Part shown: piece by piece, positions 14,147 through 32,689 of the stretch
Layout of the letters: the number at the start of each line of letters is the position of its first letter
Numbering within the stretch: the first letter of the stretch is position 1
From: Anaerolineales bacterium
GTDB taxonomy: Bacteria; Chloroflexota; Anaerolineae; Anaerolineales; Villigracilaceae
Direction of reading: 5' to 3'
Length of the DNA: 56,576 bases
Assembly: GCA_020060625.1 (NCBI GenBank)
Contig: JAGUZU010000059.1
Location: forward strand, 1 to 56,576
Made by a program: the position numbers and the translations under genes
Notes under the pieces: generated by a model
Databases searched by the model: none
What the model was told of the DNA's origin: nothing
Seen by the model: the letters and a program-made list of their open reading frames with translations, nothing else

Positions 14147-14386
14147 ATGACCGATGTAATCAAGGAAGATCAGGTATTGGATTGCTCAGGCATGCTCTGC
14201 CCCATGCCGGTCGTCAAGACCACCAAAGCGATCAAGGAATTGCAGTCGGGGCAGGTATTGAAGATGATCGCCACCGATCCCGGCGCGCCGCCGGACATGG
14301 AGGCATGGAGCAGGCAAACGGGGAACGAAATGCTCCGGTCCATGCAGGAAGACGGAAAATTCATCTTCTATTTGAAGAAAAAATAA
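14147..14386 (+). CDS. tusA: TusA-family sulfur carrier protein
   Basis: A 79-residue single-domain protein that carries persulfide sulfur on a conserved Cys. The motif LDCSGMLCPMPVVKTTKAI contains the CPxP signature with active C18; a second Cys is at 13. The ATG at 14147 follows GAAGGAGG and gives the standard TusA length; the open frame upstream is not needed. It opens the sulfur locus and is followed by two DsrE-like genes, the usual neighbours in sulfur oxidisers, where TusA hands sulfur towards the sHdr complex. Confidence 0.93.
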   Translation: MTDVIKEDQVLDCSGMLCPMPVVKTTKAIKELQSGQVLKMIATDPGAPPDMEAWSRQTGNEMLRSMQEDGKFIFYLKKK

Positions 14387-14421
14387 TCCCCATTGTCCAA
14401 CTTTAATACGGAGAAAGTACC

Positions 14422-14946
14422 ATGTCAAAATCTGACCCGAATGCTCCAAAGCGGCTTGCGCTGATCGCAAGCAAGGGAACTCTCGACTGGGCTTATCCCC
14501 CGTTCATTCTCGCCAGCGCGGCTGGCGCGATGGGATGGGAGGTGGGCATTTTCTTTACCTTTTACGGACTCACGCTTCTTAAACCGGACCTCACGGCTGC
14601 CGTCTCACCATTGGGCAACCCTGCCATGCCGATGAAAATGCCCTTCGGTCCCGAAGGCTTCCAGAACATCAACTGGCCCATGCCCAATTTGTTAATGGCA
14701 AACGCCCCCGGATTCGAGGCGCTGGCAACCAATTTGATGAAGCAGACTTTCAAGAACAAGGGCGTTGCTTCTGTTCCGGAATTACGCGACATGTGTGTTG
14801 ACCTCGATGTGCGCATGATCGGCTGCCAGATGACAATGGACGTCTTCGGCTTCAAGCGCGAAGACTTCATCAAGGAATGCGAGATCGGCGGCGCGGCAAC
14901 CTTCCTCGAATATGCCGCAGACGCAGATGTGCAGTTGTTCATCTAG
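14422..14946 (+). CDS. DsrE3A-like sulfur relay protein
   Basis: A 174-residue protein of the DsrE/DsrF/DrsH-like family, soluble sulfurtransferases that exchange persulfide with TusA. The C-terminal half has MIGCQMTMDVFG, in which C135 is the likely sulfur-binding residue, followed by GGAATFLEYAADADV, typical of the DsrE3A branch. The 35-base gap after tusA contains a Shine-Dalgarno (GGAGAAAG). No membrane segment is seen. Assignment to the 3A subgroup is by remembered motif, not by a tree. Confidence 0.85.
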   Translation: MSKSDPNAPKRLALIASKGTLDWAYPPFILASAAGAMGWEVGIFFTFYGLTLLKPDLTAAVSPLGNPAMPMKMPFGPEGFQNINWPMPNLLMANAPGFEALATNLMKQTFKNKGVASVPELRDMCVDLDVRMIGCQMTMDVFGFKREDFIKECEIGGAATFLEYAADADVQLFI

Positions 14947-14956
14947 GAATTTCCCA

Positions 14957-14985
14957 GGGTCACGCTTAAAGGCGTGACCTACCTT
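14957..14985. repeat. Palindromic repeat, family G
   Basis: GGTCACGC-TTAAAG-GCGTGACC followed by TACC; a short copy of the GTAGGTC...GACCTAC family, just upstream of the ribosome-binding site of the STAS gene. Confidence 0.7.
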
Positions 14986-14999
14986 AAAAGGAGAGAATA

Positions 15000-15338
15000 A
15001 TGGACAAACTTTCCATTCAAACTGAAATGAAAGGGCTTGTTGCGGTGGTCACTGTCAGCGGCAGAGTCGATTCTGAGACTGCGCCAACCTTGGATGCCGA
15101 ATTGACCAAAGCAGTTGGCGGGAGCTCCAAGCTTGTTCTTGAACTCAAAGGCGTGGAATACATGTCATCGGCGGGGATTCGCGCTGTGGTGAAAGCTGCA
15201 CAAGCTGTTGAGCAAAAAGGCGGCGCGGTTAAGATGGCGTCTGCGCCTGAATTGGTGACTTCGATCTTTTACACCGTCGGAATCGTGGACAAAATCAAAT
15301 CCTATGCAACGGTTGACGAAGCCGTCGCAAGTTTCTAA
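15000..15338 (+). CDS. STAS-domain protein (anti-anti-sigma-like)
   Basis: A 112-residue protein with the STAS fold pattern: VAVVTVSGRVDSETAPTLD, then KLVLELKGVEYMSSAGIRAV, where the first Ser of MSSAG is the phosphorylation site in SpoIIAA-like proteins, then a C-terminal helix. Such proteins normally bind an anti-sigma kinase, but none is encoded nearby. It sits between two DsrE-like genes, apparently in the same operon, so a regulatory or scaffolding role in the sulfur locus is inferred. The start codon follows GGAGAG. Confidence 0.88.
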   Translation: MDKLSIQTEMKGLVAVVTVSGRVDSETAPTLDAELTKAVGGSSKLVLELKGVEYMSSAGIRAVVKAAQAVEQKGGAVKMASAPELVTSIFYTVGIVDKIKSYATVDEAVASF

Positions 15339-15363
15339 GTATCAGTAATAAGGAGAGGGCAGT

Positions 15364-15765
15364 ATGAGCGTTTGGAAGACGAACGACCCCGAAGTCAAAA
15401 AGATTTTGTACGTTCAAACTCATGGGGAAAAAGACCCTGAGCGGACAGCAACTCCGTTCTTCCTCGCCACGGCGGGAGCAGCAATGGACAATGAAGTCTG
15501 CATTTATTTCACCATGAACGGTCCACAGTGTGTGGCGAAGGACAACGGCGAGAAGATCATCATTCCACGCAAGGGCGGCGGCGGCAAAGAATTGAAATTC
15601 TTCATCGAACAGGCGCAGGAAATCGGTGTGCGCTTCCTCGTCTGCCAGCCTTCGCTCGACCTGCACGGCTACACCATGGAAGACATGATCGAAGGCGTGG
15701 AGATGATCGGCGGCGCGGCATTCAACGACATGGCGTGTGATGCAGATGCGGTGATTGGTTTTTAG
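15364..15765 (+). CDS. DsrE-family sulfurtransferase (DsrE3B-like)
   Basis: A 133-residue DsrE-like protein. The N terminus KKILYVQTHGEKDPERTATPF is the usual first strand and loop; the second half has FLVCQPSLDLHGYTMEDMI, with C94 as the likely persulfide site, and ends GGAAFNDMACDADAVIGF. Spacing from this Cys to the C terminus equals that in the 174-residue paralogue, so both share the same C-terminal core while the longer protein carries a central insertion. It probably relays sulfur between TusA and the sHdr/LbpA system. Confidence 0.85.
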   Translation: MSVWKTNDPEVKKILYVQTHGEKDPERTATPFFLATAGAAMDNEVCIYFTMNGPQCVAKDNGEKIIIPRKGGGGKELKFFIEQAQEIGVRFLVCQPSLDLHGYTMEDMIEGVEMIGGAAFNDMACDADAVIGF

Positions 15766-15770
15766 TAAAT

Positions 15771-15837
15771 GGAGATTGGTAATTAGTAATTGGGTGCTCG
15801 CATTTCAAAATCTCCAATTACCAGTTACCAATTACTT
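15771..15837. repeat. Palindromic repeat, family I (GGTAATTAGTAATTGG)
   Basis: GGAGATTGGTAATTAGTAAT on the left is answered by ATTACCAGTTACCAATTACT on the right, forming a long imperfect hairpin between the DsrE and sHdrC1 genes. Confidence 0.75.
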
Positions 15838-15852
15838 CTTTTAGGAGGCTCG

Positions 15853-16560
15853 ATGCCTACCACACAAGAAAATTGGAACCCCGGCAAAGCACAGGATCGT
15901 CATCCCGAAGTTTCATACGAAGAGAAGGAGAAACTCTTTCTCGAAGTGAAAAATGATCCGCGCTACGAGGATTTTCTTTACGGATGCTACGAGTGCGGCA
16001 TTTGTGTTTCAACCTGTCCTTCGGCGCGCTTCTATGACTATTCTCCGCGGGTGATCGCGCAAGCGATGGCGCGTGAAGACATCGAGCGCGTGTACGACAT
16101 CATCTCGGAAGATATTTGGAACTGCGCGCAGTGCTTCTCGTGTTTGCGCTGCCCGCGTGGCAACAACCCTGGCGGGCTTGTAACTTTGTTGCGTGAAGTC
16201 GCAGTCAAGAACGGACTTCAAGAAACGAAAGACGTCCTGCAAGGCTACAGCCGCGTGATATACAAGGTGATGCTCAAGGGCAATCAAGTCTCGCCCGATA
16301 TGCTCCAGCCCGACTTCTTCCCCGATTGGGGTCCGTGGGTGGGAGAGTTCTCTAAGAACATGCCCGTGTGGAGAAAAGCTATCCCCGTGGATACCTTGCG
16401 CGGCGTGACCGATGCGGCGTGGAAGACCAATCGCAAGACCCTGCTCGAGTTGTACACCATCTGGTTCGAGACAGGCAACATGGACATCATCAAGGAAATT
16501 GACGAAGGTTTGCACGATTTACTGGCAGATGTGATGCAGGAAGAACTTGAGGAAGGATAG
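15853..16560 (+). CDS. shdrC1: sHdrC1-like iron-sulfur subunit
   Basis: A 235-residue HdrC-like ferredoxin subunit of the sulfur-oxidising heterodisulfide-reductase-like complex. Cluster motif 1 is CYECGICVSTCP from residue 45. Motif 2 is CAQCFSCLRCPRG from residue 91, with only two residues between the third and fourth Cys instead of the usual three. The ATG at 15853 follows TTAGGAGG; the open frame upstream is the preceding repeat. It heads the order C1-B1-A-hyp-B3 seen in lipoate-linked sHdr loci, and no methanogen-type subunits are present. Confidence 0.85.
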   Translation: MPTTQENWNPGKAQDRHPEVSYEEKEKLFLEVKNDPRYEDFLYGCYECGICVSTCPSARFYDYSPRVIAQAMAREDIERVYDIISEDIWNCAQCFSCLRCPRGNNPGGLVTLLREVAVKNGLQETKDVLQGYSRVIYKVMLKGNQVSPDMLQPDFFPDWGPWVGEFSKNMPVWRKAIPVDTLRGVTDAAWKTNRKTLLELYTIWFETGNMDIIKEIDEGLHDLLADVMQEELEEG

Positions 16561-16565
16561 GTTTA

Positions 16566-16662
16566 TGGGTTGCAAGTTGAAGGTTGAAAGTTCTTAACCT
16601 GAAACCTTCAACCTGAAACCTGAAACCTTCAACCTGAAACCTGAAACCTTCAACCTACAAAC
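16566..16662. repeat. Palindromic/tandem repeat, family A (GAAGGTTGAAAGTT)
   Basis: Left GTTGCAAGTTGAAGGTTGAA, right AACCTTCAACCTGAAACC repeated about three times in tandem. It forms a long hairpin in the shdrC1-shdrB1 gap. Confidence 0.8.
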
Positions 16663-16673
16663 TGGAGAACTTT

Positions 16674-17879
16674 ATGACCACCACCGTTGAAGAAATCCTT
16701 GAACGTAAATCCCATGCAGTGATCCGCGATGCGCAAGTTGCGCCGACGCATGACATTCGCGAAGCCTTGTTTGAGTTGGAAGCCAAGGGCGAGATCATCG
16801 TCCAGCGTGTGCCTGAGAATCACGTGGAAGTGACCACCAAGTACGGACGCACTAAGAAGATTCCCATTGACCATACCTGGCATCACAAATCTTGCGGTCA
16901 ATGCGGACACATCCCTGGGTATACCTCGTCCATTTTCTGGCTTCACCGCCAATTCAATTTGGATTATCTCGACCCTACCGACCAGACCTCCTGCACAGGC
17001 TGGAACTACTACGCCTCAGCGACATCGAACGCCGCCGCGCAAGCCGCAGTGATGAGTCGCAACTTCGCCGCCGCCCATGAGACGGGCTATTTTCCGATGA
17101 TCCACTGCGGAACATCCTATGGACATTACAAGGAAATCCGCGAGCAACTTGTCCATCACAAGGAACTGCGCGATGAAGTCCGCCGTATCTTGGACAAGAT
17201 GGGCAAACCGCTGGTCATCCCCGAAGAACTTGTCCACTATAGCGAGTGGGTGCATGTGATGCGCGGCAAGTTTGCAGAGAAACAAACCGTGGACATGAGC
17301 ATGATCACCGCCACCGTCCACCCCGCCTGCCACTATTACAAGATCGTCGCGGAAGATGCAATCTATGATCCTGAAATCTACGGCGGGCAGCGCACTGCGA
17401 CAGTCACCGCCACGCTCGAAGCGCTCGGCATTGACGTTGCCGATTACTCGACCTGGTTCGATTGCTGCGGCTTTGGCTTCCGTCATGTGTTGGTTCAGCG
17501 CGATTTCACCCGTTCGTTCTCCGTTCTGCGCAAGATCGAGACGATGAAGAATGAAGTCAACCCAGACCTGACCGTGACGCACGATACAGGTTGTGTGACC
17601 ACGCTGGATAAGAGTCAATTCGCCGCGAAGGCGCATGACCGCAAAGTGGGAATTCCCGTTTTATCTGATGCGCAGGTTGCCGCGTTGGCGATGGGAGCGC
17701 ATCCATTCCGCGTGGTGCAGTTCCACTGGCATTCCACCGATTGGCGTCCGTTCCTGGATAAACTCGGAATCAACTGGCAGAAATATTGGGACGAATTCCA
17801 GGGCGATCTCGACGCGATCCGCGCGGGCACGAAATCTGGCATTACGTGGGAAGACGCGGATAAGCCTGTAGTTTATTAA
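16674..17879 (+). CDS. shdrB1: sHdrB1-like CCG-domain subunit
   Basis: A 401-residue HdrB-like protein. HdrB subunits carry two Cys-rich CCG domains that bind noncubane iron-sulfur clusters at the disulfide site. The second domain is intact: HPACHYYK, then FDCCGFGFRH, then HDTGCVTTLD. The first is altered: it has SCGQCGH near residue 73 and SCTGW where CCG is usual. One altered CCG domain is in line with sHdrB1 proteins differing from methanogenic HdrB. It would form the core with the C1 and A subunits encoded on either side. Confidence 0.83.
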   Translation: MTTTVEEILERKSHAVIRDAQVAPTHDIREALFELEAKGEIIVQRVPENHVEVTTKYGRTKKIPIDHTWHHKSCGQCGHIPGYTSSIFWLHRQFNLDYLDPTDQTSCTGWNYYASATSNAAAQAAVMSRNFAAAHETGYFPMIHCGTSYGHYKEIREQLVHHKELRDEVRRILDKMGKPLVIPEELVHYSEWVHVMRGKFAEKQTVDMSMITATVHPACHYYKIVAEDAIYDPEIYGGQRTATVTATLEALGIDVADYSTWFDCCGFGFRHVLVQRDFTRSFSVLRKIETMKNEVNPDLTVTHDTGCVTTLDKSQFAAKAHDRKVGIPVLSDAQVAALAMGAHPFRVVQFHWHSTDWRPFLDKLGINWQKYWDEFQGDLDAIRAGTKSGITWEDADKPVVY

Positions 17880-17887
17880 GTCAAAAA

Positions 17888-17951
17888 ATGAAGGTTTCAG
17901 GTTTAAAGTTGAAGGTCAATCAACATTTAACCTGAAACCTGATACCTGACA
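17888..17951. repeat. Palindromic repeat, family A
   Basis: GAAGGTTTCAGGTTTAAAGT on the left faces TTTAACCTGAAACCTGATAC on the right, filling the shdrB1-shdrA gap. Confidence 0.8.
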
Positions 17952-17965
17952 CGGGAGAATCACAA

Positions 17966-19021
17966 ATGACATCTGGAAAAATTTTGGTAATCGGCGGCGG
18001 ACCTGCGGGGTTGGAAGCGGCTCGCTCTGCGGCGGAACTCGGCGGGGAAGTCATTCTCATCGAAAAGCGTGAACGCCTCGGCGGCACGCCCGACCGTGAG
18101 GGGTACGCCAAACTCACCCATCACTGGCGCGACGCGTCGGAAGCAATGGGCGAACTCGCGGCGGCTGTTACAAGCAACGCCAATGTGCAAGTGAAGTATC
18201 AAGCCGAAGTGAAGGGAATGTCTGGGAGTGCTGGCAACTTTGAAGTCCAGATCGAAGCGGGCGGCGTAGCCGAGTCCCTCAACGTGGGCGCGGTCATCAT
18301 CGCCACGGGCTTCCAGCATTTTGACCCAGGTCGCGCCACGCAATACTACAACTACTACTCGTTCCCTGATGTCATCACATTGACCGATCTTGAGAAGATG
18401 TTGAAGGAACACAACGTCGTGCGCCCGTCGAACGGACAAGCGCCGAAGAAAATTGCGTTCATTCAATGTGTCGGTTCGCGCGACAGACAAATTGGAAATG
18501 AATATTGTTCGAAGGTTTGCTGCGGCATTGCCAGTAAGCAAGCGATTGAATTGCGCGAGCAACTGCCCGACAGCAAAGTGATGATCTTCTACATCGACAT
18601 GCGCATGTATGGCTATTGGGAAAATGAAATCTACTGGCCCGCGCAGGAAAAATATAAAGTCAATTATGTGAAGGGTGTCATCAGTGAAGTGCTCAAGAAG
18701 GGTGACCAACTTTTGATCCGCGGTGAAGACACAACGATGTCTCGCCCGATGGAAGTGACAATGGATATGGTCGTGCTCTCGGTCGGCATGGAGCCGAGCG
18801 CAGGCACACGCGCCATCGCGCAACTGATGGGCGTTCAACAAAACAAATATGGCTTCATCGAAGCGGGCGGCGCGGGCGGTCTCGATACCGTTGCAACTTC
18901 TGTGCCTGGTATTTTTGTCGCAGGTGCGGCAGCGGGTCCTGCGGATCTCGATGATTCGATTTCGCGTGCTGGTCTCGCTGCCGCGCGTGCTGTTGCGATG
19001 ACTCGCAAGGTCATGGCGTAA
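17966..19021 (+). CDS. shdrA: sHdrA-like FAD subunit
   Basis: A 351-residue flavoprotein, the electron-branching FAD subunit of the sHdr core. The Rossmann motif LVIGGGPAGLEAARSA is at the very N terminus, as in the short sHdrA type (methanogenic HdrA has an N-terminal extension and extra ferredoxin domains). Other family motifs are IATGFQHFD, FIQCVGSRD, YCSKVCCGIASKQAIEL and the C-terminal GIFVAGAAAGPADLDDSI. The paired Cys in SKVCC are the expected cluster ligands. GGAGAATC precedes the ATG. Cytoplasmic. Confidence 0.9.
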   Translation: MTSGKILVIGGGPAGLEAARSAAELGGEVILIEKRERLGGTPDREGYAKLTHHWRDASEAMGELAAAVTSNANVQVKYQAEVKGMSGSAGNFEVQIEAGGVAESLNVGAVIIATGFQHFDPGRATQYYNYYSFPDVITLTDLEKMLKEHNVVRPSNGQAPKKIAFIQCVGSRDRQIGNEYCSKVCCGIASKQAIELREQLPDSKVMIFYIDMRMYGYWENEIYWPAQEKYKVNYVKGVISEVLKKGDQLLIRGEDTTMSRPMEVTMDMVVLSVGMEPSAGTRAIAQLMGVQQNKYGFIEAGGAGGLDTVATSVPGIFVAGAAAGPADLDDSISRAGLAAARAVAMTRKVMA

Positions 19022-19044
19022 GTCGGATTGCCAATCCGACCTAC
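19020..19044. repeat. Palindromic repeat, family G
   Basis: AGTCGGATTG-CCAATCCGACCTAC, nearly identical to the 27-bp copy inside the oxidoreductase gene at 25106-25132. Its first bases overlap the shdrA stop codon. Confidence 0.8.
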
Positions 19045-19052
19045 GAAAGACT

Positions 19053-19829
19053 ATGCTCCCTCAGCGACAGAGTCACATCATCAAGCAAAAGACGGGACCC
19101 GACGACCCCGAACTGCAAACCAATTTGCAGGAAGCGTTGGGACAAGTCGCGCCTGAGGATGTGATCGCGATAGCAGACGAATTGGCGGAACGACACGCCC
19201 GCCTCTTTCTTGGACTTCAAACTGATTCTGCTTCGTTGGCTTCATCCTTCGCTGACATCGCTTCCGCTGTCGCGCACACCAAAGCGAACGCGCGAACAAT
19301 TACTAATTACTTTTCGCAAGGTGACTTCTCTCTCTTCAACCAATTACTTAACGGCGAAGCGCCCGCCTCTGTGCGAGTGGCAACCTTTGTTGAAAAGTTG
19401 AACGCGCTCGATACGCGCCTCGCTCTCGAACTCGCTACTGGACTTTTACACAACACCTTCCCCTCCCAACACTGGCTGTGGACTCGCTGGCTGTGGGATC
19501 CGACCGTCGGCACAGGCATTCTGCCTTTGCTGGTGGGCAGCACGCACAACCTCAACGCCGAAAATCTCGCGGACGGATATGCCCGAGTCGGCGCGGTAAC
19601 AGCGATGAGCGTCAAGTTTGGCGAAGGAACTGGTTTGTTTGTTGACGAGTTAATGAGTAACGAGAAACGAGTGCCGTTTGCAAATAGTGCATTTCTGGCG
19701 TGTGCTTACAGTGTGTATCTGTACGGCACGACGAGTTGGCGATTGAGTAGAGAGTTCAACGGTCTATTGCCCACCCTGCCGAATATGGCGAGACGGTTAC
19801 TTGGATTGAAGAAATCACCCTCACCCTAA
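19053..19829 (+). CDS. Conserved sHdr-locus hypothetical protein
   Basis: A 258-residue protein without recognised catalytic or metal-binding motifs. It is mostly helical, with segments such as VIAIADELAERHARLF and NALDTRLALELATGLL, and has no clear membrane helix. Its place between shdrA and the B3-type gene is the hyp position of C1-B1-A-hyp clusters, so it is probably the same component, perhaps an assembly or structural subunit; that rests on position. The last residues (KSPSP) and the stop codon lie inside a CCTCACCCTAACCC palindromic repeat, so the native C terminus has probably been replaced. Confidence 0.7.
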   Translation: MLPQRQSHIIKQKTGPDDPELQTNLQEALGQVAPEDVIAIADELAERHARLFLGLQTDSASLASSFADIASAVAHTKANARTITNYFSQGDFSLFNQLLNGEAPASVRVATFVEKLNALDTRLALELATGLLHNTFPSQHWLWTRWLWDPTVGTGILPLLVGSTHNLNAENLADGYARVGAVTAMSVKFGEGTGLFVDELMSNEKRVPFANSAFLACAYSVYLYGTTSWRLSREFNGLLPTLPNMARRLLGLKKSPSP

Positions 19830-19886
19830 CCCTCTCCCAAAGGGAGAGGGGACTCCCTTCCCCTTCGGGGGAAGGGTCGGGGATGA
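19816..19886. repeat. Palindromic repeat, family D (CCCTCTCCCAAAGGGAGAGGG)
   Basis: Contains CCCTCTCCC-AAA-GGGAGAGGG and CCCTTCCCC-TTC-GGGGGAAGGG hairpins; it overlaps the last codons of the upstream gene. Confidence 0.85.
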
Positions 19887-19937
19887 GGGCGCGTTACGGC
19901 ACGAAGCAATTTTGAATACAACAGGAGACCATCCTTC

Positions 19938-21218
19938 ATGGCACAGAAATACGAAAAAGCAATTGCAATCGAAAAAGACAACATCGTTGTAGATGGGATT
20001 GATGTTTCTGGTCACTGGAACCGCATGTTCGAACAACGGGTGATTACCGAGTACACGCCCGAACTGATCGAAAAGATCGCGGACATCCCCAACGCGGAAT
20101 CATTTGCGAATTGTTATCAGTGCGCCAAGTGCGTCGCCGTCTGCCCCGTGGATGTGGTCGGGAATTACGGTCCGCGCAAGTTGTATCGCTATGCCCAAAC
20201 AGGCATGGATTTGACCGAAGCGCCCGAGTTGTGGCTTTGTACCACCTGCGCCAACTGTCTACGGGTGTGTCCCAAAGAAGTGAACATGGTCAAGATCATG
20301 CCCGCCGCACGCGAACAGGCGATCTTGGATGGCAAGTTCGTGCCGAATGAATTACAGCAAGCATTCGAGAATACCGCCAAGAGCGGCAACCCGCTCGGTC
20401 AGCCTCAGCGCAAACGTGACGCGTGGATCCAGTCCGCGGGCGTGCCTGTGCCGATCATCAAAGATCTCGGTCGCAAAGTGAACGTGCTTTGGTATGTCGG
20501 CTCGTATCCTTCGTATCATCCACGCGGCATTGACGCGGCGGCTGCGGCGGCGCGGATCTTCAACGCGCTCGGCATTGACTTTGCCATTCTCGGCAAGGAA
20601 GAAAAAGACGACGCCGACTCCCAGCGCCTGGCTGGTGAGAAGGGTCTGTTCGAGATGATGACCGAGCAAAACATCGAGACCTTCAATAAATATGAATGGG
20701 ACGAGATGGTTGTCACAGGTCCGCATGAGTTGAACGCGTTCAAGAACGTGTACCCAAAGTATGGCTTTGAACGTCCCGTTGTTCACTACAGCACCTTCCT
20801 TGCACGTTATCTTGACCAACTCAAGCCGTTGCTCCAGCACTCTGTAGAAAAGAAGATCACCTATCACGATCCGTGCTATCTCGGGCGTCACAACGGCGAA
20901 TATGAAGCCCCACGCAAACTACTCGAAGCCATCCCTGGCGTGGAGTTGGTGGAAATGCAGCGCAACCGCGAGAACGGTTACTGCTGCGGCGGCGGTGGCG
21001 GCGGCATGTGGATGGACTCATTCACCGCCAAGCACACCACCATGCGCCTCTCCGAAAAACGCGCGATGGAAGCCGCGTCCACGGGCGCAAACGTGCTGGC
21101 AGTCGCTTGTCCCTTCGAAGTCTCGCGCTTCACAGACGCGGTCAAGTCCACGGGCAATGAGCATGTGGATGTGTTGGATATTTTGGAATTGTTGGATAAG
21201 TCTATGCGTGGTGAGTAA
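19938..21218 (+). CDS. shdrB3: sHdrB3/HdrD-like iron-sulfur CCG protein
   Basis: A 426-residue fusion of an HdrC-like ferredoxin part and an HdrB-like part, as in HdrD/GlpC proteins. Cluster motifs are CYQCAKCVAVCP (from residue 59) and CTTCANCLRVCP (from residue 101). A C-terminal CCG domain has YHDPCYLGRHNGEYEAPRKL, then NGYCCGGGGGGMW, then VACPFE; the first CCG-like half lacks an obvious Cys set. In sHdr loci a protein of this type accompanied by etfAB, instead of C2-B2, marks the second cluster type. It probably passes electrons from the sHdr core to EtfAB. Confidence 0.85.
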   Translation: MAQKYEKAIAIEKDNIVVDGIDVSGHWNRMFEQRVITEYTPELIEKIADIPNAESFANCYQCAKCVAVCPVDVVGNYGPRKLYRYAQTGMDLTEAPELWLCTTCANCLRVCPKEVNMVKIMPAAREQAILDGKFVPNELQQAFENTAKSGNPLGQPQRKRDAWIQSAGVPVPIIKDLGRKVNVLWYVGSYPSYHPRGIDAAAAAARIFNALGIDFAILGKEEKDDADSQRLAGEKGLFEMMTEQNIETFNKYEWDEMVVTGPHELNAFKNVYPKYGFERPVVHYSTFLARYLDQLKPLLQHSVEKKITYHDPCYLGRHNGEYEAPRKLLEAIPGVELVEMQRNRENGYCCGGGGGGMWMDSFTAKHTTMRLSEKRAMEAASTGANVLAVACPFEVSRFTDAVKSTGNEHVDVLDILELLDKSMRGE

Positions 21219-21227
21219 TTATTGGGT

Positions 21228-21300
21228 TGAAAGTTACAGGTTGAAGGTTGAAAGATGTAACCTGTAACCTTCAACTTGCAACCTGAAACTGATACACAGG
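21228..21300. repeat. Palindromic repeat, family A
   Basis: GTTGAAAGTTACAGGTTGAA pairs with the downstream AACCTGTAACCTTCAACTTG; it lies between shdrB3 and etfB. Confidence 0.8.
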
Positions 21301-21308
21301 AGAACTGA

Positions 21309-22064
21309 ATGAATATCGTAGTAGCCATCAAACATATCCCCAGTATTGCCGATGACCTGCCCGTCAGCGGCAATACTGTGGACTTTGACTCGGTGGATTT
21401 CGTGCTGAACGAATTCGACGAGCAGTCCATCGAGCAGGCTGTGCTGGTGAAGGAAGCCGTCGGTGGGACGGTGACCGTGGTCGGGGTGGACATGATCGGG
21501 GAGTTGGACGCGGTGCTTCATCTGGCGCTTGCCAAGGGCGCGGATAAAGCCGTCAAGATCACGGGTGATGATCCCGCCGCAGATTCGCACACTCAAGCCA
21601 AATGGCTGTCGGAAGCGATCAAAGGTATGTCAGCGGATATTATCTTCGCGGGTGTGCAGGCTTCAAATGACCTCGACGGTCAGATCGGACCGATGCTTGC
21701 AGCGTATCTCGATATGCCGTACATCGGCGGAGTCAGTTCGGTGGAAGTGGCGGGCGACTCAGCCACGGTCAACAAGGAATTTGCGGGCGGGGTCGGCGCA
21801 AAATACGAAGTGTCGCTGCCGATGGTGGTTGGCGTACAGGCATCCGTCAAGCCGCCGCGCTATGCACCTGTGAGCAAAGTCCGCCAGGTGGCGCAAACCG
21901 CGACGATTGAAAAGGTGGCTCCATCTGGCGAAGTAAGTTCAGGATTGACAATGAAGAAGATGGCTCCGCCCGTGGTGACGGGTCATGCCGAGATGATCGA
22001 AGGTTCGTCGAAGGAAGTGGCGGCGAAGATCGTGGAGTTGTTGAAGAGCAAGGGGTTAGCTTGA
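21309..22064 (+). CDS. etfB: Electron transfer flavoprotein subunit beta
   Basis: A 251-residue EtfB. The N terminus MNIVVAIKHIPS and the block LNEFDEQSIEQAVLVKEA are characteristic, and the AMP/FAD-site region reads FAGVQASNDLDGQIGPMLA. With EtfA it would shuttle electrons from the sHdrB3 protein to the membrane oxidoreductase encoded two genes downstream. A nearby acyl-CoA dehydrogenase gene (9638-11086) is another possible donor, but operon position favours the sulfur system. Confidence 0.93.
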   Translation: MNIVVAIKHIPSIADDLPVSGNTVDFDSVDFVLNEFDEQSIEQAVLVKEAVGGTVTVVGVDMIGELDAVLHLALAKGADKAVKITGDDPAADSHTQAKWLSEAIKGMSADIIFAGVQASNDLDGQIGPMLAAYLDMPYIGGVSSVEVAGDSATVNKEFAGGVGAKYEVSLPMVVGVQASVKPPRYAPVSKVRQVAQTATIEKVAPSGEVSSGLTMKKMAPPVVTGHAEMIEGSSKEVAAKIVELLKSKGLA

Positions 22065-25309: not shown

Positions 25310-25310
25310 G

Positions 25311-25356: not shown

Positions 25357-25358
25357 TC

Positions 25359-25667
25359 ATGTTCAAATGTCCTTATTGCGAGTTTGAAGGAAAAAGGTCT
25401 GAGGTTCATAATCACCTTGCTGAAAAACACGGTGATACGCTGGGTGTGCGCGTGGATGAATTTACAAAGCACACGTTTTACGTGATCACCTGTCCCGTTT
25501 GCGGCGCGAGTTATGAACAGGTCACAAAAAAGGCTCGCCGCGATCCGAGTTTTGTGTCAGAATATGAATACGAGATTCGGTTGGTTGTTTTCGATCTACT
25601 TCTGTATCACCTGCAAGGTGAACATGATTTACCCTCACCCCTGCCCTCTCCCGAGGGGAGAGGGTGA
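25359..25667 (+). CDS. Small putative zinc-finger protein
   Basis: A 102-residue protein I do not recognise as a named family. It starts FKCPYCEFEGKRSEVHNH and continues to AEKH, a C2H2-like finger, and carries a second half-site CPVCGASYEQVTKKARRDP. The rest is charged. The last dozen residues (LPSPLPSPEGRG) and the stop come from a family-D palindrome, so the original C terminus may be lost. It lies between the EMO-like gene and lbpA in the same direction; the start codon abuts the repeat and has no clear Shine-Dalgarno. A regulatory or assembly role is possible but not shown. Confidence 0.65.
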   Translation: MFKCPYCEFEGKRSEVHNHLAEKHGDTLGVRVDEFTKHTFYVITCPVCGASYEQVTKKARRDPSFVSEYEYEIRLVVFDLLLYHLQGEHDLPSPLPSPEGRG

Positions 25668-25668
25668 A
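25631..25668. repeat. Palindromic repeat, family D
   Basis: ACCCTCACCCCTGCCCTCTC then CCGAGGGGAGAGGGTGA; it encodes the C terminus and stop codon of the zinc-finger gene. Confidence 0.85.
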
Positions 25669-25685
25669 ATAAAGGAGAATAAAAA

Positions 25686-26123
25686 ATGGCAACAGTTCGT
25701 GGATGTAACATTCCTGAAAATCTCTACTACTGGGTGGAGAAGCACGCCTGGGCATTGCCCATGGACGATGACACAGTGAAGATCGGCATCACCGATGTGG
25801 CGCAGAATTTGGCGAAGGGCATTGTCAATGCCACGCCGAAGGAAGCGGGACGAACCGTGCAGAAAGGCAAGTCCGCGGGGACGTTGGAAAGCGGCAAATG
25901 GGTGGGACCTGTCACGTCGCCAATCACAGGCGAGATCGTGGAAGTCAACGAGATAATGAAGGGCAAACCTTCGCTCATCAATTCTGATCCGTACGGCGAT
26001 GGCTGGTTCGTGAAAGTCAAGCCAACCGATTGGGCTGGCGAAAGCGCGTCGCTGTTGACGGGCGAAGCAGCCGTGGCGGCATATCAGAAATTTATGGAAG
26101 AGCAGAATCTCAATTTCGAGTAA
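25686..26123 (+). CDS. lbpA: Lipoate-binding protein of sulfur oxidation
   Basis: A 145-residue GcvH-like protein. The lipoylation site is K71 in GTLESGKWVGPV, within the usual beta-hairpin. The N terminus RGCNIPENLYYWVEKHAW is the LbpA-type signature and differs from glycine-cleavage H protein; no gcvT or gcvP is nearby. In sHdr organisms LbpA carries sulfur as a lipoate adduct that sHdr oxidises. A ribosome-binding site (AAAGGAG) precedes the ATG. First of two paralogues. Confidence 0.9.
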   Translation: MATVRGCNIPENLYYWVEKHAWALPMDDDTVKIGITDVAQNLAKGIVNATPKEAGRTVQKGKSAGTLESGKWVGPVTSPITGEIVEVNEIMKGKPSLINSDPYGDGWFVKVKPTDWAGESASLLTGEAAVAAYQKFMEEQNLNFE

Positions 26124-26127
26124 ATGA

Positions 26128-26192
26128 GTTGAATGGTTGAAGGTTGCAAGTTGAATGTTTGACCTGCGACCTTCAACCTTTGACATTCAACC
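26128..26192. repeat. Palindromic repeat, family A
   Basis: GAATGGTTGAAGGTTGCAAG on the left faces GCGACCTTCAACC and CATTCAACC on the right, in the gap between the two lbpA genes. Confidence 0.8.
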
Positions 26193-26196
26193 ACCC

Positions 26197-26643
26197 ATGA
26201 TCTTCTACGCCTGCGACATCCCCGAAGACCTCTACTACGACATCGAGCGCGATGTGTGGATTCGATTCGATGGCGACCTCGCGACTCTCGGCATGACCGA
26301 TGTTGCCCAAACCCGTTGCGGAAAGTTCGCCGCGCTCAGTTTTCGTGAAGTGGGCAAGAAAGTGGCACAAGGCAAAGCGCTGGCGACCATCGAATCCGCC
26401 AAATGGGTGGGACCGTTCCCCGCGCCGTTCTCGTGTGAGATCGTGGCGACGAATGAAGAAGCGTTTGCAAAGAACATCTTGCTCGCCAACAAAGAACCGT
26501 ACACCGATGGCTGGCTTGTGAAAGTAAGACCGACGAATTTGGAAAACGAGCGCGGTCACCTTGTTACAGGTGATGAAGCGGTTGAGAAATACAAAGAGAG
26601 AATCAAAGAACTGAAAGTTAATTGTTTGAGATGTATTGACTAG
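26197..26643 (+). CDS. lbpA: Second lipoate-binding protein
   Basis: A 148-residue paralogue of the preceding gene, with N terminus YACDIPEDLYYDIERDVW and lipoylation site K69 in ATIESAKWVGPF. It is clearly diverged and has extra Cys at 6, 41 and near the C terminus (NCLRCID). The ATG at 26197 starts exactly at the conserved N terminus and lies four bases after a palindromic repeat; no strong Shine-Dalgarno is visible, so translation may be coupled to the upstream copy. Two LbpAs could serve different steps or partners. Confidence 0.88.
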   Translation: MIFYACDIPEDLYYDIERDVWIRFDGDLATLGMTDVAQTRCGKFAALSFREVGKKVAQGKALATIESAKWVGPFPAPFSCEIVATNEEAFAKNILLANKEPYTDGWLVKVRPTNLENERGHLVTGDEAVEKYKERIKELKVNCLRCID

Positions 26644-26743
26644 CATGTCATTGCGAGCCGCGCTCTTGCTCTTTGCGGCGAAGCAATCCCCTAGCATGTT
26701 TGGAGATTGCTTCGGGCGGAAAGGCACCGCCCTCGCAATGACG
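26644..26743. repeat. Palindromic repeat, family B
   Basis: CATGTCATTGCGAGCCGCGC at the left faces GCCCTCGCAATGACG at the right; full-length copy between lbpA2 and the ligase gene. Confidence 0.88.
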
Positions 26744-26769
26744 TAAAACTAACTTAGAGGAGAATCCCA

Positions 26770-27855
26770 ATGTCCAAGAAAATCCGTTTGCTCTATATGG
26801 AAGGCGTATCCCCGCTCCGCTCGCAGACCGTTTATCACGCGGTTGGGTATGCCATGAAGGAAAGCACGCCGAACACCATCATCATGGTCTCGCCGAATGG
26901 ACCGTATGTGTCCATTGGTTACCATCAGGATATCCAAAAGGAAGTGGACCTGGATTACTGCGAAAAGCATAACCTGCCTGTTTATCGTCGCGAAGTCGGA
27001 GGCGGCGCGGTGTACTTGGATAACGGTCAACTCTTCACGCAGTGGATCTTCCACAAAGAAGATTTGCCTGCCACGCTCGAAGAACGCTTCAAACTTTATA
27101 TCGACCCGCTGGTGGATACTTATAAAGAACTTGGCATTCCTGCCAACCTGCGCCCCATCAACGACGTACATGTCAACGGCAAGAAGATCGGCGGCACAGG
27201 CGCGGCGCAAATGGGCATTGCGGAAATTCTCGTCGGCAGCCTGATGTACACCTTCGACAAGAAAACCATGTCGCAGGTCTTGAAAGTCCCCTCCGAGAAA
27301 ATGCGCGACAAGATTTTTGAATCCCTCGAAGCTTACATGACGACCATGACCGAACAACTCGGCTCCACGCCTGACCGCGCGATGGTGAAAGACTTGTACA
27401 TGAAAAAAGTCTCCGAAGCGTTGGGCATGGAAGTCTACGAAGGCGAGTGGACAGCCGAAGAAGAAGCGATGGCAAAAGAGATCGACGCGCGCTTCACATC
27501 CGACGAATGGCTGTACCAGAAGGGTCAACTCAAGCAGCAGGGCGTGAAAATTCATCAGGACGTCCACATCGTCGAAGCGGCATTCAAGGCACAGGGCGGT
27601 CTGATCCGCGTCATCGCCCGCCTGCATGACGGTCGCATTGACGACGTCACTATCTCTGGCGATTTCACTCTGTTGCCCGTCTTCGCTCTCGGCGCGCTCG
27701 AACAATCCCTGCGCGGTGTCGCTGCCACGCCTGAGAATCTCAAATCGAAAATTGAGGAAGCGTACTACCGCCTCAACATCCAGTCCCCTGGCGTCACACC
27801 CGCCGATTTCACTACGGCGATCATGAATGCCGTAACGCCGCCGCAAGCCGCTTAA
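26770..27855 (+). CDS. lplA: Lipoate-protein ligase (catalytic plus accessory domain)
   Basis: A 361-residue ligase that would attach lipoate to the LbpA proteins. The catalytic domain (about 1-245) has YRREVGGGAVYLDNGQL and the lysine motif NDVHVNGKKIGGTGAAQ. The remaining about 115 residues match the LplB-type accessory domain, so the gene resembles the fused sLpl(AB) form associated with sulfur oxidisers. Co-location with two lbpA genes gives its substrate. Lipoate-synthesis genes (LipS1/LipS2 or LipA) are not in the window, so lipoate or octanoate must be handled elsewhere. Confidence 0.9.
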   Translation: MSKKIRLLYMEGVSPLRSQTVYHAVGYAMKESTPNTIIMVSPNGPYVSIGYHQDIQKEVDLDYCEKHNLPVYRREVGGGAVYLDNGQLFTQWIFHKEDLPATLEERFKLYIDPLVDTYKELGIPANLRPINDVHVNGKKIGGTGAAQMGIAEILVGSLMYTFDKKTMSQVLKVPSEKMRDKIFESLEAYMTTMTEQLGSTPDRAMVKDLYMKKVSEALGMEVYEGEWTAEEEAMAKEIDARFTSDEWLYQKGQLKQQGVKIHQDVHIVEAAFKAQGGLIRVIARLHDGRIDDVTISGDFTLLPVFALGALEQSLRGVAATPENLKSKIEEAYYRLNIQSPGVTPADFTTAIMNAVTPPQAA

Positions 27856-27858
27856 TCA

Positions 27859-27934
27859 TCTCACCACAGAGAACACAGAGCGCACGGAGAATCAAAAAGC
27901 ATCCCTGTGATCTCCGTGAACTCTGTGGTGAAAA
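27859..27934. repeat. Palindromic repeat, family F (CACAGAGAACACAGAG)
   Basis: CACCACAGAGAACACAGAGC at the left faces CCGTGAACTCTGTGGTG at the right. Further copies lie at 50036-50104 and at the right window edge. Confidence 0.85.
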
Positions 27935-27968
27935 CTCATCCTTCATAATTCATCCTTCATTCTTTCAA

Positions 27969-29618
<1,650 letters not shown>

Positions 29619-29620
29619 TC

Positions 29621-29708
29621 GGTTGAAAGTTACAGGTTGAATGTTGAAGGTTTTCAACTTGCGACCTTCAACCTGAAACTTGGAACCTGACACTTGGAAC
29701 CTGACACC
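29621..29708. repeat. Palindromic repeat, family A
   Basis: GTTGAAAGTTACAGGTTGAA at the left, CGACCTTCAACCTGAAAC at the right, then two tandem GGAACCTGACAC units immediately before the molybdoenzyme start codon. Confidence 0.8.
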
Positions 29709-29710
29709 TT

Positions 29711-32689
29711 ATGACCAAAATCCCTCAAACCTCCGCCGGAACCGCCGTCCCGCAGTTTGCCGCGTCCGACCGCAAGCCCATCAAACTGACCGAAGTCGTC
29801 CACCCTGATGGTCGCATCAGCCAGTATCCACCCACCGATGTGTGGGATGAATGGGTGGAATGGGATGGTAAGGAATGGCCCAAGAAAGTCGCGCGGCGAT
29901 ACACGCTCGTGCCTACTGTTTGCTTCAACTGCGAATCCGCTTGTGGACTGCTCGCTTATGTGGACAAAGACACCTATGAGATTCGCAAGTTCGAAGGCAA
30001 CCCTGTCCACCCTGGCAGCCGTGGACGCAACTGCGCCAAGGGACCCGCGACTCATAATCAAGTTTATGATCCCGAACGGATTTTGTATCCTCTTAAGAGG
30101 GTCGGTAAACGCGGCGAAGGCAAATGGGAGCAAATCTCTTGGGAGCAGGCGTTGACCGAAATTGCCGAGAAAATGCGTGAGAGCAAATTGCGCCGCCCGA
30201 ATGGAATCGTCTATCACGTGGGTCGCCCAGGCGAAGACGGATACGCCAACCGCGTCGTGCAGACCTGGGGCATGGACGGTCACAACAGCCACACCAATAT
30301 CTGTTCATCATCAGCACGCGCAGGCTATAACTTCTGGCTCGGGCAGGATCGTCCCAGCCCAGACTTTGCGAATGCGCGAGTGATCCTTCTGATTTCAAGT
30401 CACCTCGAAACGGGACATTACTTCAACCCGCATGCGCAGCGCATCATCGAAGCCAAAACGGATGGCGCGAAACTCATCACCTTCGACCCGCGTTTGAGCA
30501 ACACCGCTTCCATGAGCGATGTCTGGCTGCCGACTTACCCTGGCAGTGAAAATACGATTCTGCTTTCGATTGCGAATCATTTGATTCAAAATAATTTGTA
30601 CAACAAAGACTTCATGCAGAAATGGGTCAACTGGAAGGAAACACTAAAGGCAGTAGCCAGTGGTCAGTTATCAGTAAACAGTGAACAACTGTCGGCGGAG
30701 ATAAAAGAGGCGTTTAACGTTGAACGTTCAACGTTAAACGTTAAACACTTCGACCTGTTTGACCGTCTCCTCAAAGATTTATATTCCGAATACACGTTTG
30801 AACGCGCCGCAAAGGAATCCGAAGTTCCCATCGAACGCATCGAGGAAACGGCGCGGCTGGTTGCCAATTGCGAAGGCAAACTTGCCACGCATGTTTGGCG
30901 TTCTGCAAGCGTTGGCAATTTGGGCGGATGGCAGGTGGCGCGTTGTCTGCTCTTCCTCAATGTGCTGACGGGAAGTGTCGGCAACAAGGGCGGCACCTCG
31001 ATGACGGGTTGGAACAAGTTCGTACCCAAGCCGTTCAAGGGTGCGCCCGCTCCCGAAACTTGGAACGAACTGCACTATCCCATCGAGTATCCGCTTGCGC
31101 ATTACGAGATGTCCATTCTTTTGCCGCACATGCTCGAAGAAGGGCGCGGCGACATCGACGTGTATTTCACGCGCGTTTACAACCCGATGTGGGTCAACCC
31201 TGATGGTTTCATGTGGCTCAAGGCGCTCAAGGATGAAGACTCGAAGATCAAATGTTATGTCGCGCTCACGCCCACGTGGAATGAAACCGCATGGTTCGCA
31301 GATTATGTTTTGCCAACGGGTCATGGACCCGAGCGTCACGACTTGATGAGTCAGGAAACGCACGCGGGGCAGTGGATCGCGTTCCGTCAACCTGTGCGCC
31401 GCGTTGCGATGGAACGCGCGGGCATGAAGGTGGACTTCACCTATCAAGCCAACCCTGGTGAAGTATGGGAGGAGAACGAATTCTGGATTCAACTCTCCGC
31501 GAAGATGGACCCCGATGGTTCGCTTGGCATTCGTCAGTGGTTCGAGAGTCCGTACCGCCCTGGCGAGATCATCACCGTGGATGAATACTATCAGTGGATC
31601 TTTGAGAACTCGGTGCCAGGTCTGCCTGAAGCCGCCGCAAAAGAAGGATTGACTCCGCTGGCGTACATGCGCAAGTATGGCGTGTTTGAAGTGAAAAAAG
31701 AAAATTATGTTCCGTTTGAAAAGGGAATCGGTACATTGGTAAACGGTAAATTGGTACAGGGCAATGACCAATCTACCAAGTCCCAATCTACAGTCATAGT
31801 TGACGAACATGATCGTGTTCTGAAAGATGGCCATGTTGTTGGCGTAAATATAGACGACGAAGTCAAAGCAGGCTTCGATACGCCGTCCAAGAAACTTGAA
31901 TTCTTCAGCGACACGCTCGCCAATTGGGGTTGGAGTGAAAAAGAAAACGTCATTCCGTGGTCAGTGAAGAGTCACGTCCACCCCGATACGATTGACCGCT
32001 CCAAAGGCGAGATGATTCTGTTGCCCAATTTCCGCTTACCAACATTGATTCACACACGAAGCGCAAATGCGAAATGGCTGTATGAGATCTCGCACAAGAA
32101 TCCCATCTGGATGAATCCCGAAGACGCGCTCCGCCTCGGGCTGGACACAGGCGACCTCGCCAAAGTGGAAACCGAGATCGGTCACTTCGTGGATACGGTC
32201 TGGGTCACGGAAGGCATCAAACCTGGCATCATTGCCATCAGTCACCACTTGGGACGTTGGCGCTTGCAGGAAGATAAAGGTGTGAACAAAGGCTCATCCA
32301 ACCTCGTGGAACTGCACGACGATGGCAAAGGTGGCTTCCTCATGCGCGTCGTCCACGGGGCAACTTCGTGGGAATCATCCGACCCCGATACCAGCCGCAT
32401 CTGGTGGAGCAACGTCGGGGTGAACCAGAACCTCGCCCACGCCGTCCACCCTGACCCCATCAGCGGAGTCCACTGCTGGCTGCAAAAAGTGTTCAAGGTC
32501 AGCAAAGCCGGAGCAGGCGAAAAAGCAGGCGACTTGTTTGTGGATACGAACAAGTCCATGCAGAAGTATCGCGAATGGCTGGCGATGACGCGACCTGCTG
32601 ATAAAGTGAGCCCAGACGGGAATCGCCGTCCGTATTGGTTGGCGCGTCCATTAAAGCCAACGAAAGAAGCATATAAATTGCCGAAGTGA
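29711..32689 (+). CDS. Cytoplasmic molybdopterin oxidoreductase, candidate sulfite dehydrogenase catalytic subunit (SoeA-like)
   Basis: A 992-residue complex-iron-sulfur molybdoenzyme. The N-terminal 4Fe-4S site is C71, C74, C78 (CFNCESACG) and C108 (NCAKGPATHNQVYDPER). The likely molybdenum ligand is C198 in NICSSSARAGYNFWLG. There is no twin-arginine signal, which argues for the cytoplasmic SoeA group and against exported PsrA/PhsA. With sHdr upstream, the expected reaction is oxidation of sulfite to sulfate, electrons leaving through the fused FeS/NrfD subunit. Two segments (about residues 314-346 and 674-694) look like palindromic-repeat insertions translated in frame. Substrate is inferred from context; polysulfide or another oxyanion is possible. 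Confidence 0.82.
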   Translation: MTKIPQTSAGTAVPQFAASDRKPIKLTEVVHPDGRISQYPPTDVWDEWVEWDGKEWPKKVARRYTLVPTVCFNCESACGLLAYVDKDTYEIRKFEGNPVHPGSRGRNCAKGPATHNQVYDPERILYPLKRVGKRGEGKWEQISWEQALTEIAEKMRESKLRRPNGIVYHVGRPGEDGYANRVVQTWGMDGHNSHTNICSSSARAGYNFWLGQDRPSPDFANARVILLISSHLETGHYFNPHAQRIIEAKTDGAKLITFDPRLSNTASMSDVWLPTYPGSENTILLSIANHLIQNNLYNKDFMQKWVNWKETLKAVASGQLSVNSEQLSAEIKEAFNVERSTLNVKHFDLFDRLLKDLYSEYTFERAAKESEVPIERIEETARLVANCEGKLATHVWRSASVGNLGGWQVARCLLFLNVLTGSVGNKGGTSMTGWNKFVPKPFKGAPAPETWNELHYPIEYPLAHYEMSILLPHMLEEGRGDIDVYFTRVYNPMWVNPDGFMWLKALKDEDSKIKCYVALTPTWNETAWFADYVLPTGHGPERHDLMSQETHAGQWIAFRQPVRRVAMERAGMKVDFTYQANPGEVWEENEFWIQLSAKMDPDGSLGIRQWFESPYRPGEIITVDEYYQWIFENSVPGLPEAAAKEGLTPLAYMRKYGVFEVKKENYVPFEKGIGTLVNGKLVQGNDQSTKSQSTVIVDEHDRVLKDGHVVGVNIDDEVKAGFDTPSKKLEFFSDTLANWGWSEKENVIPWSVKSHVHPDTIDRSKGEMILLPNFRLPTLIHTRSANAKWLYEISHKNPIWMNPEDALRLGLDTGDLAKVETEIGHFVDTVWVTEGIKPGIIAISHHLGRWRLQEDKGVNKGSSNLVELHDDGKGGFLMRVVHGATSWESSDPDTSRIWWSNVGVNQNLAHAVHPDPISGVHCWLQKVFKVSKAGAGEKAGDLFVDTNKSMQKYREWLAMTRPADKVSPDGNRRPYWLARPLKPTKEAYKLPK
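30651..30748. repeat. In-frame repeat block inside the molybdoenzyme gene (families H and J)
   Basis: CAGTGGTCAGTTATCAGT and ACAGTGAACAACTG match the intergenic element at 41604-41680. They are followed by a second palindrome, GTTTAACGTTGAACGTT / AACGTTAAACGTTAAAC. The block encodes residues of the type SGQLSVNSEQLS and NVERSTLNVKH. Confidence 0.8.
31730..31793. repeat. In-frame repeat inside the molybdoenzyme gene (family I-like)
   Basis: GGTACATTGGTAAACGGTAA and TTGGTA on the left, GACCAATCTACC and CCAATCTACAG on the right, form an imperfect hairpin. It encodes the low-complexity run LVNGKLVQGNDQSTKSQST. Confidence 0.7.

What the first reader, a model, noticed from the sequence alone, without database searches (positions are those of the whole stretch)
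14147..32689. Complete lipoate-linked sHdr sulfur-oxidation locus with ETF, membrane oxidoreductase and SoeABC-like complex
Seen: tusA, two dsrE-like genes, C1-B1-A-hyp-B3, etfBA, an EMO-like gene, two lbpA, lplA, then fused soeBC-like and soeA-like genes, all on one strand over about 18.5 kb. Known: sHdr with LbpA oxidises sulfur to sulfite in Hyphomicrobium and others, and a cluster type with B3/EtfAB/EMO instead of C2B2 has been described. Inference: this organism oxidises reduced sulfur to sulfate and feeds electrons to quinone at two points. The host lineage looks like Chloroflexota, where I do not know of a characterised example.
Basis: partly seen in the sequence, partly recalled or inferred. 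Interest (0 to 1): 0.85.

Follow-up and report, generated by a model that had tools for sequence, protein, structure and literature searches.

The report
Sulfur-oxidation gene cluster in Chloroflexota
A complete set of genes for oxidising sulfur inside the cell, of a kind already known from other bacteria, sits in a member of the Chloroflexota; it is genuine and well preserved but not new in kind, with a few conserved extra parts for which we found no description.

Summary
In detail: 14147-32689 carries, on one strand, tusA, dsrE2, dsrE, shdrC1-B1-A-H-B3, etfBA, an EMO-like membrane reductase, two lbpA, lplA, a fused FeS/NrfD (SoeBC-like) gene and a SoeA-like gene. The locus meets the published gene-order definition of a type II sHdr system; its HdrA groups with the solved sHdrA 6TJR, apart from methanogen HdrA and the host's own Hdr/Qmo proteins; motifs are intact. 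It is a new member of a known kind: Thermomicrobium roseum was reported with such a cluster, up about 45-fold on starvation, and Chloroflexaceae MAGs with Hdr-like and LbpA genes; 25 of 400 Chloroflexota genomes sampled here carry a close sHdrB1. The host is probably a Villigracilaceae (Anaerolineae). Added here: the SoeA-like gene and the NarL-type sensor kinase co-occur with sHdrB1 across 150 family genomes; LipS2 was not found in the host, so LbpA is probably lipoylated through LipA and the operon's Lpl(AB); AprA was not found, leaving the SoeABC-like enzyme as sulfite-oxidase candidate. The sulfur source and any sulfur-dependent activity are not shown.

The parts
11664..12308 (-). NarL/LuxR-type response regulator, possible operon regulator
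   Evidence: Response_reg + GerE; beside the locus in many family members
12301..14010 (-). Membrane histidine kinase with GAF domain, divergent from tusA
   Evidence: HisKA_3, HATPase_c; found in 30 of 33 sHdrB1+ genomes among 150; Cys349 in 27 of 27
14147..14386 (+). TusA sulfur carrier
   Evidence: PF01206 82 bits, cut-off 28.6; Cys18 in 68 of 68; ribosome site
14422..14946 (+). DsrE2
   Evidence: NF047629 211.9 bits, cut-off 210
15000..15338 (+). STAS-domain protein, absent from most loci
   Evidence: PF01740; matched in 7 of 80 named loci
15364..15765 (+). DsrE-type sulfurtransferase
   Evidence: PF02635; Cys94 in 70 of 70
15853..16560 (+). sHdrC1, two [4Fe-4S] cluster motifs
   Evidence: Fer4 and HdrC models; cysteines
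16674..17879 (+). sHdrB1, proposed catalytic subunit
   Evidence: CCG domain; tree
17966..19021 (+). sHdrA flavoprotein
   Evidence: best PDB match 6TJR 312.9 bits; cluster cysteines in 74 of 74; tree
19053..19829 (+). sHdrH, unknown function
   Evidence: no Pfam or NCBIfam family; alignment of 39; model pLDDT 90
19938..21218 (+). sHdrB3 (fused C2-B2 equivalent)
   Evidence: Fer4 models + CCG, two cluster motifs
21309..22064 (+). EtfB
   Evidence: PF01012
22169..23107 (+). EtfA
   Evidence: PF00766 + PF01012
23201..25309 (+). EMO-like membrane ETF:quinone oxidoreductase
   Evidence: hydrophobic segments in the first 232 residues, two cluster motifs, CCG; PDB 9ojn 235.7 bits
25359..25667 (+). 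Two-finger zinc-binding-like protein, unknown function
   Evidence: C4, R13, H17, H19, H24, C45, C48 in 51 of 51 and C7 in 50 of 51 rows
25686..26123 (+). LbpA (lipoate-binding), lysine 71
   Evidence: GCV_H; K71 and C7 in 61 of 61
26197..26643 (+). LbpA (lipoate-binding), lysine 69
   Evidence: GCV_H; K69 and C6 in 52 of 52
26770..27855 (+). Lpl(AB) lipoate-protein ligase with small domain
   Evidence: PF21948 + PF10437
27969..29618 (+). Fused SoeB-SoeC-like FeS/NrfD protein
   Evidence: Fer4_11 + NrfD; four cysteine groups
29711..32689 (+). SoeA-like molybdoenzyme
   Evidence: three Mo-enzyme domains; Cys198 ligand-type motif, no hydrophobic segment; co-occurrence

Best explanation
This is a type II sHdr-LbpA operon. 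Sulfane sulfur is passed in the cytoplasm by TusA/DsrE-type carriers to the sHdr complex and lipoylated LbpA, where it is oxidised to sulfite. Electrons go through sHdrA/B3 to EtfAB and by the EMO-like protein to quinone. Sulfite is oxidised to sulfate on the cytoplasmic side by the SoeABC-like complex, a second quinone entry. Shown: genes, order, motifs, descent, co-occurrence. Inferred: substrates, direction, electron path, and regulation by the divergent two-component system.
For: Defining order C1-B1-A-H-B3 plus etfAB present (definition in PMC11582611). HdrA groups with 6TJR, split from methanogen HdrA and the host's own Hdr/Qmo at 99/96. Motifs invariant. SoeA-like gene in 31 of 33 sHdrB1+ genomes of 150 family genomes, Fisher p 2e-25. 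Fused SoeBC plus SoeA relatives lie beside TusA and DsrE in Rhodococcus jostii pRHL3 and beside a TauE sulfite exporter and rhodanese in two haloarchaea (fusion checked). AprA not found in the host. Three matches over the heme-copper oxidase cut-off.
Against: No expression or activity data. No sulfide:quinone reductase was recognised among the proteins classified, and SoxY was not found, though that search's control was silent. No control genome reached the AprA cut-off either. SoeA was not compared with a characterised SoeA. Four of 35 SoeA+ genomes lack a detected sHdrB1, and two of 33 sHdrB1+ lack SoeA. Shared ancestry inflates the Fisher values.
Confidence: 0.82

Rival explanations
1. The sHdr part is real but serves organic thiols or redox balance in starvation rather than inorganic sulfur respiration, as was suggested for T. 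roseum.
For: T. roseum authors propose oxidation of thiol compounds and saw induction in starvation (passages). No sulfide or thiosulfate oxidising entry enzyme was identified here.
Against: TusA, DsrE2, DsrE and a SoeABC-like enzyme in the same operon fit sulfane sulfur to sulfate; SoeA co-occurs with sHdrB1.
Confidence: 0.25
2. The molybdoenzyme is not a sulfite dehydrogenase but a reductase (polysulfide, thiosulfate, tetrathionate) that happens to follow the operon.
For: The best NCBIfam scores are to PhsA (206.8, cut-off 694) and, for the fused protein, TtrB (198.9, cut-off 416) and DsrO (174.2, cut-off 200); the best PDB match, 2vpw, is named thiosulfate reductase.
Against: No hydrophobic export segment on SoeA (its one early RR, at 62, stands directly before the FeS motif); neighbours in distant relatives concern sulfite or sulfane sulfur; linkage to sHdr.
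Confidence: 0.2
3. An anaerobic, methanogen-like HdrABC electron-bifurcating complex.
For: HdrA, HdrB and HdrC homology; the host has such HdrA and HdrB proteins elsewhere, on C33.
Against: HdrA is 351 aa without a ferredoxin domain, groups with 6TJR, and sits with LbpA and TusA.
Confidence: 0.03

Closest known systems
Thermomicrobium roseum trd_0160-0142 sHdr cluster (PMC6776052)
   Same: hdr, etfAB, tusA, two dsrE and lbpA genes in one cluster; Thermomicrobium relatives are near neighbours in the sHdrB1 tree
   Different: Three lbpA there, two here. T. roseum carries a SoeBC-SoeA pair on its megaplasmid; that the trd_0142-0160 cluster is chromosomal is recalled. Here the pair follows lplA. 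The NarL pair was not detected beside the four Thermomicrobiota loci tested
Type II sHdr systems, group III of Cao 2018 (Actinobacteria, Firmicutes; PMC6067878) and Sulfobacillus cluster II (PMC4378227)
   Same: hdr-like genes with etfBA and lbpA
   Different: SoeABC-like pair in the operon here; lipoate assembly by Lpl(AB), LipS2 not found in the genome (how the named strains do it was not checked)
Hyphomicrobium denitrificans type I sHdr-LbpA
   Same: sHdrA (6TJR; organism recalled), LbpA, sulfurtransferases
   Different: B3/EtfAB/EMO in place of C2B2; a NarL pair instead of an ArsR-type sHdrR beside the locus
SoeABC of Allochromatium vinosum and Aquifex aeolicus (PMC8076601)
   Same: Mo subunit + FeS subunit + NrfD membrane part, catalytic part predicted in the cytoplasm
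   Different: B and C are one polypeptide here; not placed in a tree with the characterised enzymes

Membership tests
[quoted passage not shown]
   definition read in passages of PMC11582611
Type II sHdr system | HdrA of the short sulfur-oxidiser type, not methanogen type | tested here: met
Type II sHdr system | LbpA with lipoyl lysine encoded nearby | tested here: met
Type II sHdr system | sulfane-sulfur-dependent sulfite formation | not testable with these tools
   needs a culture or purified proteins
sLpl(AB)-LipS1/S2 lipoate assembly | LipS1 and LipS2 present | tested here: not met
   LipS2 not found in G000 (query identified as LipS2); LipS1 not searched genome-wide; LipA present. About a quarter of sHdr bacteria lack LipS1/S2 in PMC10332631
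SoeABC sulfite dehydrogenase | Mo subunit, FeS subunit and NrfD part | tested here: met
   FeS and NrfD fused
SoeABC sulfite dehydrogenase | catalytic subunit without export signal | tested here: met
   no hydrophobic segment; only RR at 62, before the FeS motif; read by eye, no signal predictor used
SoeABC sulfite dehydrogenase | branches with characterised SoeA | not tested
   no characterised SoeA sequence was obtained
EMO/EtfD-type ETF:menaquinone oxidoreductase | membrane N-terminus, two [4Fe-4S] cluster motifs, CCG domain, beside etfBA | tested here: met
   these features and the name EtfD for 9ojn are recalled, not read

The most novel reading that the evidence does not exclude
In Anaerolineae the type II sHdr operon has become a self-contained sulfane-to-sulfate module with its own parts: a conserved two-finger zinc protein of the sHdr/LbpA machinery, a SoeBC fusion, general LipA-based lipoylation, and a thiol-sensing NarL-type two-component system (invariant linker cysteine 349) in place of the ArsR repressor sHdrR.
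Probability: 0.4. Interest if true: 0.5.

Novelty: new member of a known kind. Interest (0 to 1): 0.35.

Why it matters
It adds a Chloroflexota family found in groundwater and sludge genomes to the likely cytoplasmic sulfur oxidisers, and it gives three testable parts (zinc protein, regulator pair, SoeBC fusion) of a pathway whose regulation and accessory proteins are little known outside Hyphomicrobium.

Tried and rejected
Methanogen-type Hdr: rejected by the HdrA tree, though the program warned that long branches meet and the outgroup order is unsure. Recent transfer from another phylum: not supported, sHdrB1 is nested in an Anaerolineae/Thermomicrobium clade (quick tree, SH-aLRT only; one row, L137, contains a stop), although Chloroflexota as a whole need five changes and are not one clade. 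STAS as a core part: matched in only 7 of 80 loci. Fold of sHdrH: a confident model gave no Foldseek match at E 0.001 or better; the second look put two 8-oxoguanine glycosylases first (Z 7.5 and 6.7) and a third at Z 4.1, too weak for an all-helical protein. Zinc protein: no fold match at E 0.001 or better. SoxY: 0 of 31 genomes, but the control rang nowhere, so inconclusive. PF07992 in the host gave 32 matches; besides the window's HdrA I classified five proteins behind them (C67, C38, C33 and two on C63), none a sulfide:quinone reductase; the rest I judged only by size and opening residues or not at all. Persulfide dioxygenase was not searched. PF04143 importers: in 25 of 31 genomes, with or without sHdr, so not informative. 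The plasmid search for sHdrB1 relatives gave only an orphan Acidithiobacillus gene on three records and a Picosynechococcus homolog. One paper search on EMO gave a single hit, on benzylsuccinate, not read. That the zinc protein is undescribed rests on one search of an open-access library; it may be the protein that PMC11582611 calls sHdrI, whose sequence I did not have.

TusA had first been scanned in a wrong frame and was scanned again.
Full report
What is there. The window is one whole contig (C125) of a 3.67 Mb genome, 98.25% complete. From 14147 to 32689, on the + strand, lie tusA, dsrE2, a STAS gene, dsrE, shdrC1, B1, A, H, B3, etfB, etfA, an EMO-like gene, a small zinc-finger-like gene, two lbpA, lplA, a fused FeS/NrfD gene and a large molybdoenzyme gene. 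The tusA ATG at 14147 is preceded by AAGGAGG.

Are the parts intact? HdrA keeps its four cluster cysteines (74 of 74 aligned), EMO 12 cysteines in 36 of 36, LbpA K71 in 61 of 61 and K69 in 52 of 52, TusA Cys18 in 68 of 68, DsrE Cys94 in 70 of 70 (the window plus named loci with at least 40% identity, weaker or short matches dropped, close relatives included). SoeA shows the N-terminal FeS motif and a cysteine in the Mo-ligand-type motif, conserved in 5 of 6 rows; the sixth, L108, is a wrongly picked short frame.

Host and distribution. The nearest are Chloroflexi and Anaerolineales MAGs, one titled Candidatus Villigracilaceae; the host family is probably that one (inference). Records titled Actinomycetota, Bacteroidota, Calditrichota, Rokuibacteriota and Deltaproteobacteria carry it too. 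Of 400 genomes of the phylum 65 have some match, and 25, the host included, have one at 67% identity or more, the next best being 29%. Of 150 genomes of the family 39 match, 33 of them at 83% or more. In the phylum stretches etfB and etfA follow B3 in 21 of 22 that reach beyond B3 (my count; one etfA is cut by a contig end, and two stretches show etf matches in pieces); the exception is L050. In the 80 named loci, several Bacteroidota loci carry LbpA and Lpl-like genes between B3 and etfBA.

Descent. HdrA best matches 6TJR, sHdrA of Hyphomicrobium (organism recalled), at 312.9 bits; methanogen HdrA reaches 217. In a tree of 35 rows the 30 type II sHdrA and 6TJR stand apart from methanogen HdrA and three Hdr/Qmo proteins of the host (99/96). 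A tree of 55 sHdrB1 rows puts the window among Anaerolineae with Thermomicrobium relatives nearby.

How it most likely works. Sulfurtransferases hand sulfane sulfur to sHdr/LbpA; sHdr forms sulfite; EtfAB and the EMO-like protein carry electrons to quinone; the SoeABC-like complex oxidises sulfite. The EMO-like protein matches PDB 9ojn, named iron-sulfur-binding reductase. AprA was not found in the host (no control genome reached its cut-off), leaving the SoeABC-like enzyme as the candidate for sulfite; SorA- and SUOX-type enzymes were not searched. Of the plasmid-borne SoeA relatives (1052 records with a match, 40 listed) I looked at six: Rhodococcus jostii pRHL3 (54.4%) has DsrE, TusA and metallo-hydrolases alongside, two haloarchaea (49-51%) have TauE and rhodanese, T. 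roseum (56.3%) has the pair on its megaplasmid without other sulfur genes in view, and Sulfurovum and Azoarcus, more distant, have a separate NrfD. In the first four the partner is a fused Fer4_11 + NrfD protein. Three heme-copper oxidase matches over the cut-off make aerobic use possible. The sulfur supply is unknown.

Lipoate. LipA is in 31 of 31 tested family genomes (23 of the 33 sHdrB1+ ones and 8 without), LipS2 in 3 of 31: two sHdrB1+ (G072, G018) and one without (G372) (LipS2 and LipS1 named, both just or well below the curated cut-offs). In the named loci LipS1/S2 (10 of 80) and an LplA of 40% or more after B1 (23 of 80) never coincide; 47 have neither within the stretch held. So lipoylation here should use LipA plus Lpl(AB). 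PMC10332631 already reports LipS1/S2 in 74.3% of sHdr bacteria, hence not in the rest (passages).

Regulation. The kinase is found in 34 of 150 family genomes, 30 of them sHdrB1+; SoeA in 35, 31 of them sHdrB1+ (Fisher 7e-24 and 2e-25, uncorrected for kinship). The regulator was not searched genome-wide. In the four kinase-only genomes the kinase's upstream side lies within 1.3 kb (three) or 1.7 kb (one) of a contig end, so the locus may be broken off (coordinates). Of 43 named loci with tusA and 3.5 kb before it, 22 have kinase and regulator (all Chloroflexota), 1 the kinase only, 7 an ArsR-like gene, 0 both kinds, 13 neither (one member checked as ArsR). The thresholds leave out L131 and L138, which do show both proteins. 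One locus without upstream tusA (L121) has both kinds of regulator. Cys349 is in 27 of 27 kinases; no control set of other kinases was examined.

Zinc protein. A 102-residue protein between EMO and lbpA; C4, R13, H17, H19, H24, C45, C48 in 51 of 51 rows and C7 in 50 of 51 (rows include duplicates of some genomes). Found in 50 of 105 stretches, a number of them cut before it. One literature search gave no description.

Literature, seen as passages only: PMC11582611 (type I/II definition), PMC10332631, PMC6067878 (group III arrangement), PMC4378227 (Sulfobacillus cluster II), PMC6776052 (T. roseum cluster, average 45-fold induction), PMC13384644 (Chloroflexaceae MAGs with Hdr-like and LbpA genes; T. 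roseum named as a Cao 2018 case), PMC8076601, PMC12345210, PMC12740240, PMC12423496.

Verdict. Real, complete, correctly read, and a new member of a known kind in a phylum where it was already known.

Noticed in passing
L180 (G000:C63), 9523-17612, - strand: The host has a second sulfur-type cluster: TusA, an FlpD/MvhD-type protein, QmoA-like, QmoB-like, a 107-residue protein, QmoC-like (below the cut-off) and a TsuA-like thiosulfate transporter (below the cut-off).
   Followed up: partly
L182 (Acidithiobacillus ferrooxidans plasmid NZ_CP040512.1), 6033-10191: An orphan sHdrB1-like gene (52.9%) with a glycine-cleavage-H-like gene and hemerythrins, Hcp further on, but no other sHdr genes in the stretch.
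   Followed up: no
L184 (Rhodococcus jostii pRHL3), 2295-13492: DsrE, TusA, fused SoeBC-like and SoeA-like genes in a row between GloB-like metallo-hydrolases, one of them with a rhodanese-like end, and ArsR regulators: perhaps a plasmid-borne sulfane-to-sulfate module.
   Followed up: partly
window 19053-19829: The sHdrH model is confident and all helical, without a significant Foldseek match; the second-look top two are 8-oxoguanine DNA glycosylases at Z 7.5 and 6.7. Too weak to interpret.
   Followed up: partly
window 2001-12000 versus 14001-34000: G+C falls from 0.60-0.61 to 0.52-0.56 about where the operon starts.
   Followed up: no
L050 and L108 (equal contig length; Chloroflexi bacterium CSP1-4): sHdr locus without etfBA after B3 in the stretch held; HdrA-like genes lie there instead.
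   Followed up: no
window 38845-41464 and 52640-55061, - strand: Two MBOAT acyltransferase genes, each beside a gene with a weak GDSL-lipase match below the cut-off, flank a histidine biosynthesis operon at 43588-50037.
   Followed up: no
window 33936-34670: FmdE-domain protein with a zinc finger, overlapping the end of a DUF2270 gene just downstream of the operon.
   Followed up: no
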